Shown here piece by piece: positions 46,384 through 49,232 of a stretch of DNA of 64,000 nucleotides. Made by a program: the position numbers and the translations under genes. Position 1 is the stretch's first letter; each line of letters begins with the position of its first letter. The notes beneath the pieces are model-generated. The model was not told where the DNA came from. It saw only the letters and a list, made by a program, of their open reading frames with translations, and did no database searches. This stretch comes from Methanobrevibacter millerae (lineage in GTDB: Archaea; Methanobacteriota; Methanobacteria; Methanobacteriales; Methanobacteriaceae): positions 62,001 to 126,000 of the forward strand of contig SUTF01000007.1 in assembly GCA_015063005.1 (NCBI GenBank), in the 5' to 3' direction.

Positions 46384-46919
46384 GTAACTATTTAATTCTT
46401 TTTTTAATTTTTGGTATTGAAAATTTTTATCATGCGGTATTTTTTTCTAAGGTTTTTGGCGATAGGGAATTTAAATCATATTTTGGGAAATGGATTTTGC
46501 CATTGCCTCATTTAATTTTTTTCCATTTTTCTAGATATCTTCCAGATTTTGCATCTCTTTTCTAGGTCAATCCTATTATAACTATGTTATTAATTGAAAT
46601 TGTTTAATTATTAGTAAAATTATAAAACAGTTCGTTAATTATAATATGGATTTTACACTGACTGATTACTATTTTTTTAATTTTTAGTTAAAATGTATAA
46701 CTTTATATATTATGAAGGATTATATAAAGATAAGCTATAGTAATGGCTCAATTTTAAGATGTTGAAAAATGGGTATTTTCAATTCAATATGAGAGGTAAA
46801 TTATAAGAAAATTATTTAAATACTTTAACTGGTGATATCATGAAGGAAAAATCGATTTTATTTGCAGCTAGCATTTTAGACTCCCCCACATCGAGGCTCT
46901 AGTTAATGGTTGTGTTCAA
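46384..46919. other. AT-rich spacer with one SD-preceded mini-ORF
   Basis: 536 bases without a standard gene. TATA-like stretches occur near 46703-46712 and 46722-46735. GGTGATATC precedes a 20-residue frame MKEKSILFAASILDSPTSRL (46840-46902) ending in TAG; it could be a leader peptide or the start of a decayed gene. The GC-richer CTCCCCCACATCGAGGCTCT inside it stands out from the AT-rich surroundings. The real gene starts at 46920. Confidence 0.4.
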
Positions 46920-47528
46920 ATGGGTTTAAAAGATATTATTTTAGTACTAATACTTATTTTTATTTTTGGAATCGTGATTTTCGGTTCACTTGGCAGCTTT
47001 TTAAGCAATGTAAATACTGCCGTAACTGATGTTGCGGATGCAGTTGCCGAGGATGAAAGTTTTTCAGTTGATTTTTTACAGAAAAACAGTCAGTCAATGC
47101 TTTATAAGGAACATTCAGACAATGATGGTTTAGGCGGAAGTTCTTCAGGCAAGCAGTCTTCTAGTGGAAGTTCTTCAGGTGCAAGTTCTTCAGGCAAGCA
47201 GTCTTCAGGTGGAATTTCTTCGTTCGTAGGCAGTTCTCAAAACTCTTTTTCTAATAATGATGCAGGAAACAAGGATGCTTCAAATAATGATAAATCAGAT
47301 AATGAATCTTCATTCTGGAACATTATAGATATCCTAGGTCCTAAAAGCGAATCATCAAAGACTGAATATGACGACTATCAGATAGATAAGGAAACAGGCA
47401 TGTTTGACTCAGAAGGAAATCCGATATTCTTAAGCATTGTTTCAACAAGCGGAGGACAGATGGAACCTGGAATATATGAAGTGTACTGGTCAGAACTTCA
47501 TGTGTTCAACTACACCAAAATCAAATAG
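46920..47528 (+). CDS. Anchored surface protein with Ser-rich repeat linker
   Basis: A 202-residue protein: N-terminal hydrophobic anchor (about 5-29, DIILVLILIFIFGIVIFGSL), then a Ser/Gly low-complexity segment (about 76-105) built of tandem SSSGKQSSSG-like units, an Asn/Asp/Ser-rich region and a C-terminal domain (about 150-202) with YQIDKETGMFDSEGNPIFL and EPGIYEVYWSELHV. It ends 2 bases before the Cas6-like gene, so both are on one transcript. Its surface role is inferred. Confidence 0.72.
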   Translation: MGLKDIILVLILIFIFGIVIFGSLGSFLSNVNTAVTDVADAVAEDESFSVDFLQKNSQSMLYKEHSDNDGLGGSSSGKQSSSGSSSGASSSGKQSSGGISSFVGSSQNSFSNNDAGNKDASNNDKSDNESSFWNIIDILGPKSESSKTEYDDYQIDKETGMFDSEGNPIFLSIVSTSGGQMEPGIYEVYWSELHVFNYTKIK

Positions 47529-47530
47529 GG

Positions 47531-48178
47531 ATGATTGGATTGTCTCGCGTCAAGATCTATTTCAAGGGATATGCAAGCAGAAACATACAGAAGAACTTCG
47601 ATGATTACATGTCTTATCTCTTTCACGAAAAGGTAAATGAACTCTTTAGAGGTACTGAATTCGAGGACTTTCGTTTTTTTACCTTTTCAGGATTCAGAAT
47701 CGAAAACCGCATTATCAATTTCATCGTATCAAGCGTCAGCGATGAATTCATAAGGATGCTGGTATCCGCATTCGTGATGGGCGAAAGCATAATATTCAAC
47801 AACTGCAAGCTTGAAATAGTTAAAGCGGAATTTCTGCCAAGGCCTATTCTTAAAAACGGTGAAGCATCATTCATCACGGCTTCACCAATATTTCTTGCCG
47901 ATTGCCTTGTAATGGATAATCTCGGAGATATTCTGGAGGATTTGCTGATACAAAACTTCTGCGACTATTTCAACAGGCAAAGAGGAGACCTTCACTGTGA
48001 GTTCTATTCCCGCCATGACCACTACGGCACATACAGCGAAGAGAGCGAAACTTTCAGGAACTACTACTATAACATAGATATTGTAATGAAAGGCAGCCCA
48101 GAGCTTATAGCCTTTGCATATGACGTTGGACTTGGAAACAGCAACAATCAGGGATTTGGAATGCTGGACATATATTAG
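47531..48178 (+). CDS. Cas6-like CRISPR-repeat RNA endonuclease, stand-alone
   Basis: A 215-residue protein with two RAMP/ferredoxin-like halves. FFTFSGFRIENR (49-60), FITASPIFLA (114-123) and above all the Gly-rich loop near the end, VGLGNSNNQGFGMLDIY (199-215), match Cas6 signatures (GxGxxNxxGFGM). Cas6 cuts pre-crRNA within repeats. The segment aligned with the catalytic His of Pyrococcus Cas6 seems to lack His; His32 or others might substitute. No CRISPR repeats and no other cas gene are in the window. It lies 2 bases after an anchored surface protein gene and 9 before a membrane protein gene. Activity is unproven. Confidence 0.85.
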   Translation: MIGLSRVKIYFKGYASRNIQKNFDDYMSYLFHEKVNELFRGTEFEDFRFFTFSGFRIENRIINFIVSSVSDEFIRMLVSAFVMGESIIFNNCKLEIVKAEFLPRPILKNGEASFITASPIFLADCLVMDNLGDILEDLLIQNFCDYFNRQRGDLHCEFYSRHDHYGTYSEESETFRNYYYNIDIVMKGSPELIAFAYDVGLGNSNNQGFGMLDIY

Positions 48179-48187
48179 GTGTTTAAA

Positions 48188-48508
48188 ATGAACAGTAATG
48201 ACTCAAGCAAGCATCTTTTTTTATATCTGGTTTTGGGATCATTCATCATGTTTTTCATGATAGTCTTTCTTTTTTCGTTTTTCAATCAGAGAAGCATGAT
48301 TTTTCTGGTAATCATTTTTGGATTTCTGGTGTTTTTTTCTGTGATTTTCAAATGGTTCAAAAAGGAAAACAAAAATACGATTGATTTTTTAAATCAGGAA
48401 AGCAAATCGAAGGTGCAGTTTGCATCAAAAGTAGATTATCAAGAAGAAAAGCTTTACAGCCTGAACGGAAGCTATCCTCAAAAATATTCCAGGCTAAAAA
48501 AGCTTTAA
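48188..48508 (+). CDS. Two-segment membrane protein downstream of the Cas6-like gene
   Basis: A 106-residue protein with two hydrophobic helices (about 10-34 and 38-56; FIMFFMIVFLFSFFNQRSMI then IIFGFLVFFSVIF) and a basic, helical cytosolic tail (KENKNTIDFLNQESKSKVQF). No family was recognised. Start ATG 48188 has AGGTG upstream; the GTG at 48179 belongs to that site. It is third in the operon with the anchored protein and the Cas6-like protein. Confidence 0.66.
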   Translation: MNSNDSSKHLFLYLVLGSFIMFFMIVFLFSFFNQRSMIFLVIIFGFLVFFSVIFKWFKKENKNTIDFLNQESKSKVQFASKVDYQEEKLYSLNGSYPQKYSRLKKL

Positions 48509-48518
48509 CTATTTTTTT

Positions 48519-49232
48519 TTAAAATTCATTGACTATTGCCAATGCGTTAAGGGACCTTGGAAAGCCGATATATGGCAGAATTACAGTTATTGCAGAGATA
48601 AGTTTCTCTTTTGTGTTTCCAACATTCAGGTTTGCTTGGATGTGGCTCCTAAGCTGGTTTTCACAGCCTCCAAGTGTTGCGATGAATGTGAATGTTATCA
48701 GTTCCCTTTCAGCGTCATTCAATCCGTCACGTGTGTAGAAGTCTCCGAAGCAGTATCCCTCAAGGAATGTGTTGATATGCTTCTGGCCTTCAGGTGCATT
48801 GTCGTTCATAGCCTGAATCATCTCTTTGCCGAAATATCTGTCCTGTATTTCACGTCCTTTTTCGTACCTGTTTTGGGAATCTGTATTTGAACGCTTTTTC
48901 ATGGGCATCACTATTTCCTTTTTCTTGAATACCTTGATTACAACTCCAAAAAAGTTGTGTGCACGTCCGAATCCTACATAGGGCACAGACTGGTAAAGCA
49001 GTTCCTTGACCTCTTCGGCAGTGATGTATTTGCCTACTGCTGAGAGCAAAATCTTTTTAAATGCCTTGGGTGACTGGCATGCAATAAGTGATGCCAATGT
49101 TACCAAAACAGACTCTTTTTGTGTAAGTGTAGAGTATTTGAATACTTCATCATATGCAAAGTTTTTGAAAATTTCATGAAATTCCGGGTCGTTACTTTCT
49201 ATTCTTTCAAAATTGTCAAATAGGTCGTTCAT
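48519..49232 (-). CDS. Carboxymuconolactone decarboxylase (AhpD-like) family protein
   Basis: A 237-residue all-alpha protein with two CMD/AhpD-like domains (about 25-105 and 135-232). The second has ERELITFTFIATLGGCENQL followed by RSHIQANLNVG; a His is kept but the CxxC pair of true AhpD peroxidases is absent (single Cys), so peroxidase chemistry of the AhpD kind is doubtful. The function is unknown beyond the family. It converges on the membrane protein gene at 48188. Confidence 0.86.
   Translation of the reverse strand: MNDLFDNFERIESNDPEFHEIFKNFAYDEVFKYSTLTQKESVLVTLASLIACQSPKAFKKILLSAVGKYITAEEVKELLYQSVPYVGFGRAHNFFGVVIKVFKKKEIVMPMKKRSNTDSQNRYEKGREIQDRYFGKEMIQAMNDNAPEGQKHINTFLEGYCFGDFYTRDGLNDAERELITFTFIATLGGCENQLRSHIQANLNVGNTKEKLISAITVILPYIGFPRSLNALAIVNEF

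What the first reader, a model, noticed from the sequence alone, without database searches (positions are those of the whole stretch)
46920..48508. Orphan Cas6-like RNA endonuclease inside a surface-protein operon
The protein at 47531-48178 carries the Cas6 glycine-rich loop (GLGNSNNQGFGM) and an ITASPIF motif, yet there is no CRISPR array, no other cas gene and no phage-defence gene in 64 kb. It is packed between an anchored Ser-rich surface protein (2-base gap) and a two-helix membrane protein (9-base gap). Stand-alone Cas6 proteins can serve a distant array, but the tight operon with membrane proteins suggests a different use, such as cutting cellular or operon mRNA, or a membrane-linked RNA processing unit. 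The residue aligned with the catalytic His of Pyrococcus Cas6 appears not to be His.
Basis: partly seen in the sequence, partly recalled or inferred. Interest (0 to 1): 0.75.

Follow-up and report, generated by a model that had tools for sequence, protein, structure and literature searches.

The report
Repurposed Cas6 in a membrane-protein operon
A rumen-type methane-making archaeon carries a CRISPR RNA-cutting protein (Cas6) that has lost its usual cutting and RNA-gripping residues, has been kept under strong selection beside two membrane proteins, and has most likely been given a new, still unknown job.

Summary
The protein at window 47540-48178 is a real Cas6 by sequence (TIGR01877, above cut-off) and by predicted fold (best PDB hits are all Cas6). 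It lies between a Ser-rich one-helix membrane protein and a two-helix membrane protein. The same three-gene order occurs in two further Methanobrevibacter genomes, in one of them as a duplicated unit, and nowhere else in 151 genomes of the order. The orphan group differs sharply from 12 canonical Cas6 proteins of its relatives. It has no catalytic His, no positive charge in the glycine-rich loop, no KRKR hairpin, and a net charge of about -10 instead of +6 to +16. It sits on a very long stem branch but is tightly conserved within the group (dN/dS about 0.07). I read it as an exapted, probably non-nucleolytic Cas6. Array and orphan Cas6 dissociate in both directions among relatives, so the array is probably not its client. 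Actual function, RNA binding and membrane partnership are inferred, not shown.

The parts
46690..46919 (+). Probable promoter and leader (TATA-like TATATATTATGA near 46700); about 400 bp upstream is conserved in G021 and G097 copy A
   Evidence: 74-77% identity in upstream blastn blocks; the promoter reading is by eye
46920..47528 (+). Surface protein: one N-terminal membrane helix, Ser/Gly/Asn-rich linker, conserved C-terminal domain
   Evidence: 17 of 139 family genomes have a relative, mostly away from any cas6
47540..48178 (+). Orphan Cas6 (212 aa, conserved TTG start; ATG 47531 is an alternative)
   Evidence: families; fold; residues, tree
48188..48508 (+). Two-helix membrane protein with conserved cytosolic tail; convincing matches only next to the orphan Cas6 (3 of 139 genomes)
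   Evidence: low-confidence helical model
48510..48519 (+). T-run after the third gene, probable terminator; T-rich stretches follow in G021 and G097 too
   Evidence: read by eye

Best explanation
This is an exapted Cas6. A type I-B-like Cas6 of Methanobacteriaceae left its cas operon and became fixed between a surface protein and a two-helix membrane protein. It lost the catalytic histidine and the basic RNA-binding surface, while keeping the two-domain fold under strong selection. It most likely works as a cytosolic, non-nuclease binding or scaffold subunit of a small envelope-linked unit, with the two-helix protein as its membrane anchor or effector and the surface protein as the outer part. 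Shown: fold, operon conservation, residue losses, charge inversion, selection. Inferred: loss of RNA cleavage, loss of crRNA binding, complex formation with the two-helix protein, any regulatory or defence output.
For: Cas6 by profile and fold: best PDB match Cas6 5yi6, E 1e-12, TM-score 0.80 by query. The gene order surface/Cas6/two-helix is conserved in G021 and G097, at different genomic places. The two-helix protein occurs only with the orphan Cas6 (two further hits are weak, E 7e-5 and 1e-3). The catalytic His column (12 of 12 canonical) is empty in all three orphans, and a second conserved His became Asp. 17 of 23 canonical basic columns are lost and 14 acidic ones gained; the glycine-rich loop Lys is lost. 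pI 4.9 versus 9.0-9.6. The orphan clade has 100/100 support on a 3.06-change stem, with short branches inside. dN/dS: Cas6 0.07, two-helix protein 0.19, surface C-terminus 0.065.
Against: Only three genomes carry it, all of one genus. Active Cas6 enzymes without His exist (SsoCas6, PMC3652601), and two basic positions near the active site persist (Lys31 and Arg/Lys45). Net charge is not a measure of local charge. The orphans share two His in the C-terminal hairpin (RHxHYGTY) that could form a new active site. No binding or complex evidence exists. The fold model has moderate confidence (pLDDT 76), and the glycine-loop end is below 50.
Confidence: 0.6

Rival explanations
1. It is a trans-acting Cas6 that still cuts the transcript of the 92-repeat array 46 kb downstream.
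For: Array on the same contig; the only Cas6 match in the genome; related arrays lie next to Cas10/Csm1 (type III-A) in relatives, and most type III systems borrow Cas6 from elsewhere (PMC12669027). The repeat is unstructured, as Pyrococcus-like Cas6 prefers.
Against: G013 has the same repeat family (37 copies, including the identical 37-mer) without an orphan Cas6 and without a TIGR01877 match. G021 and G097 have the orphan Cas6 without that repeat. Catalytic His and basic surface lost. No Cas10 or Cas1 was found to use the crRNA, though the assembly is only 89.5% complete.
Confidence: 0.13
2. It is an atypical RNA-binding protein or RNase with a non-CRISPR substrate (own operon or cellular mRNA), using Lys31, Arg/Lys45 or the new RHxHYGTY hairpin.
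For: Retained basic positions and orphan-specific conserved histidines. His-free Cas6 enzymes exist, and an inactive Pyrococcus homologue still binds RNA (PMC3727216).
Against: Acidic, with glycine-loop and hairpin charges lost. No structured element was detected in the leader and no Rfam match in the operon. No CRISPR-like repeat in the window.
Confidence: 0.18
3. It is a decoy or regulator of CRISPR effector complexes, mimicking Cas6 through protein contacts.
For: Retained Cas6 fold without RNA-handling residues. G097 also has a canonical Cas6 with its effector genes, and G000 has an array.
Against: G000 and G021 show no detected effector to regulate (G000; no Cas1 in either). The link to two membrane proteins is unexplained.
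Confidence: 0.06
4. It is a decaying relic of a lost CRISPR locus.
For: No cas operon around it; array without cas genes.
Against: Open frames in all copies, dN/dS 0.07, conserved order and a duplicated unit.
Confidence: 0.03

Closest known systems
Type I-B-like Cas6 of Methanobacteriaceae (e.g. L034:10007-10735, L067:9604-10341)
   Same: Sequence family, two-domain RAMP fold, FFTFS, SPI and GxGxxxxxGFG motifs; 22-33% identity
   Different: Canonical ones mostly lie near cas genes, keep His and KRKR, pI 9.0-9.6; the orphan lies in a membrane-protein operon, no His, pI 4.9
PhCas6nc, inactive Cas6 of Pyrococcus horikoshii (3qjj)
   Same: Cas6 fold without catalytic activity; among the best PDB fold matches
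   Different: PhCas6nc binds CRISPR-type RNA; no membrane-protein partners are reported in the passages read
SsoCas6 (Sso1437) of Sulfolobus
   Same: No catalytic His
   Different: SsoCas6 cleaves repeat RNA with a network of Lys/Arg; most basic positions are lost here
Exapted CRISPR modules reviewed in PMC8730458
   Same: Cas components used outside adaptive immunity
   Different: In the passages read these keep several effector genes; here a single Cas6 remains, with membrane proteins

Membership tests
Cas6 (TIGR01877 / PF01881) | Match above curated cut-offs | tested here: met
Cas6 (TIGR01877 / PF01881) | Two RAMP domains, Cas6-like structure | tested here: met
   nine top PDB hits, all Cas6 or Cas6-related
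Cas6 (TIGR01877 / PF01881) | Glycine-rich loop with at least one positive residue (consensus in PMC3727216) | tested here: not met
   Loop shape kept, but the Lys column reads S/N/N in the orphans and Lys in 12 of 12 canonical
Cas6 (TIGR01877 / PF01881) | Catalytic Tyr/His/Lys of the Pyrococcus type | tested here: not met
   His missing in 3 of 3; Tyr is His in 2 of 3; Lys kept as Arg/Lys. Known active exceptions without His exist
Cas6 (TIGR01877 / PF01881) | crRNA-processing activity | not testable with these tools
   needs biochemistry
Cas6 of a CRISPR-Cas system | Genetic link to an array or cas genes | tested here: inconclusive
   Array 46 kb away but no cas genes found; orphan and repeat dissociate among relatives
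Trans-acting Cas6 of type III-A | Presence of Cas10/Csm1 in the genome | tested here: not met
   (control genomes ring); genome 89.5% complete, so absence is not certain

The most novel reading that the evidence does not exclude
A single Cas6 has been domesticated into a three-gene, duplicable envelope unit in which the dead Cas6 fold acts as a cytosolic sensor or scaffold that controls a two-helix membrane protein, a use of a Cas6 outside CRISPR.
Probability: 0.35. Interest if true: 0.75.

Novelty: new variant of a known kind. Interest (0 to 1): 0.55.

Why it matters
Exaptation of whole CRISPR modules is known, but my library searches found no described case of a lone Cas6 fixed in a membrane-protein operon after losing its RNA-handling residues. 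If right, it shows that the RAMP/Cas6 fold can serve a non-RNA or envelope-linked job. It also warns that a curated Cas6 profile match (here above cut-off) does not by itself mean crRNA processing. The same genome offers a clean test, because its own array provides the obvious substrate.

Tried and rejected
Scan of phage, plasmid and viral collections for the orphan: nothing. GTDB contig scan: only the G021 record, named uncultured Methanobrevibacter RUG12316. Rfam on the operon: one chance hit below threshold. Leader folding: not better than shuffles. CRISPR-like repeat in the window: none. A generic helicase similarity to Cas3 (E 7e-5, 24% identity, C16) was not counted as Cas3. Two weak TIGR01877 hits (C20, C7:60691) were not Cas6. 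Array against phages: only a chance match. Structure of the two-helix protein: too low in confidence to search (pLDDT 62). The pattern search for TTGAAAY arrays missed the real array, because its repeat ends in ATTGTGAC.

Full report
What is there. The ORF at 47531-48178 is a Cas6 by Pfam, NCBIfam (69.2 bits against a cut-off of 58.65) and PADLOC. An AlphaFold2 model (pLDDT 76) matches solved Cas6 structures first (5yi6 at E 1e-12, then 3qjj, 3i4h, 3ufc and 3pkm). The start shared with both other genomes is TTG 47540. Upstream is a one-helix Ser-rich protein (46920-47528); downstream is a protein with two hydrophobic segments (48188-48508). A T-run follows the third gene.

Genome context. The window is G000:C7:62001-126000 of a 2.16-Mb, 20-contig genome, 89.5% complete. 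Its genus is Methanobrevibacter, because the same-genus genome G021 is record RUG12316, 'uncultured Methanobrevibacter sp.'. I read the whole genome in stretches and searched it for arrays; known arrays in relatives served as positive controls. One array was found: 92 repeats of 37 nt, ATTGCAAAGATTATTCTATTAAAACAAGGATTGTGAC, with 91 spacers of 33-40 nt, at C7:156492-163142. It lies 46 kb downstream of the Cas6 gene and 30.5 kb beyond the window. No cas gene was seen beside it. The genome has no second Cas6, no Cas1, no Csm1 and no I-B effector subunits by tblastn. Other CRISPR types were not searched.

Is the array the client? The repeat family is common in Methanobacteriaceae and lies next to Cas10/Csm1 in two relatives and Cas1 in others, so it looks like a type III-A array. 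Such systems often borrow Cas6 (PMC12669027), which makes a trans-acting role a fair rival. Against it: G013, a single-contig 99% complete genome with the same repeat, has neither the orphan nor a TIGR01877 match, while G021 and G097 have the orphan but not the repeat.

Distribution. The orphan occurs in 3 of 151 genomes of the order: G000, G021 and G097. G021 has the same three genes (84% identity in Cas6). G097 has two copies, one between nusA and rpsL and one elsewhere, with Cas6 parts near-identical. The full G097 protein was read across two contigs that overlap by 295 identical bases. Convincing relatives of the two-helix protein occur only beside the orphan Cas6. The surface-protein family is wider, in 17 of 139 genomes, usually without Cas6.

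Divergence from canonical Cas6. Aligned with 12 canonical Cas6 proteins, all three orphans lack the active-site His (12 of 12 canonical) and a second conserved His. The Pyrococcus structures place these residues. Of 23 mostly basic columns, 17 are lost, among them the KRKR hairpin and the Lys of the glycine-rich loop; 14 acidic columns are gained. Net charge is -9 to -11 against +6 to +16. An orphan pI of 4.9 is ordinary for this proteome (median 5.0), which fits a protein no longer selected to grip RNA. The tree groups the orphans with full support on a 3.06-change stem, with crown branches of 0.08-0.29. Between G000 and G021, dN/dS is about 0.07 for Cas6, 0.19 for the two-helix protein and 0.065 for the surface C-terminus; dS is near saturation, so these ratios are rough.

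Interpretation. A long stem and slow crown, with loss of catalytic and RNA-contact residues but retention of fold and partners, is the pattern expected of a changed function. I therefore favour exaptation as a non-nuclease subunit linked to the membrane (0.6). The step from residue loss to lost RNA activity is inference: SsoCas6 cleaves without His (PMC3652601), and in the related Cas5c family Tyr can be His and the catalytic His can be Phe/Tyr (PMC3727216). Two orphan-specific conserved histidines (RHxHYGTY) keep a relocated active site possible.

Limits. Three genomes only, one of them 75% complete; moderate model confidence; no electrostatic map; no complex prediction; closed-genome confirmation lacking.

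Noticed in passing
G000:C7:156492-163142 (L047:10492-17142): 92-repeat CRISPR array of type III-A-like repeats with no cas genes beside it and no Cas1, Cas2 or Csm1 found in the assembly; three spacers duplicated.
   Followed up: partly
L064:10724-11561 and L066:1-985: In G097 one copy of the three-gene unit sits between nusA and rpsL of the RNA polymerase/ribosomal operon, on the opposite strand; a second copy is on contig C33 (92% identical from the surface-gene start on).
   Followed up: partly
window 47375-47525; L231-L243: The surface-protein C-terminus belongs to a family of short membrane proteins (DWQxDYETGxYDEDGNPIYRSVxSTSGGQYxPGIYExYWS) in at least 17 Methanobacteriaceae genomes, several beside argB or htpX-like genes.
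   Followed up: partly
L032:11370-11558 and window about 46600-46680: A 62-aa hydrophobic ORF upstream of the unit in G021 appears broken by stops in the window's genome.
   Followed up: no
G000:C7:141020-165176: McrB/McrC-like genes, UvrD-like helicases and an McrB-N-like gene flank the array; two array-side genes (HIRAN-like, McrB-N-like) are shared with G013. Names are by eye.
   Followed up: no
G013, G012, G123, G124, G069: Genomes with many copies of this repeat but no TIGR01877 match; what processes their crRNA is unclear (a divergent Cas6 was not excluded).
   Followed up: no
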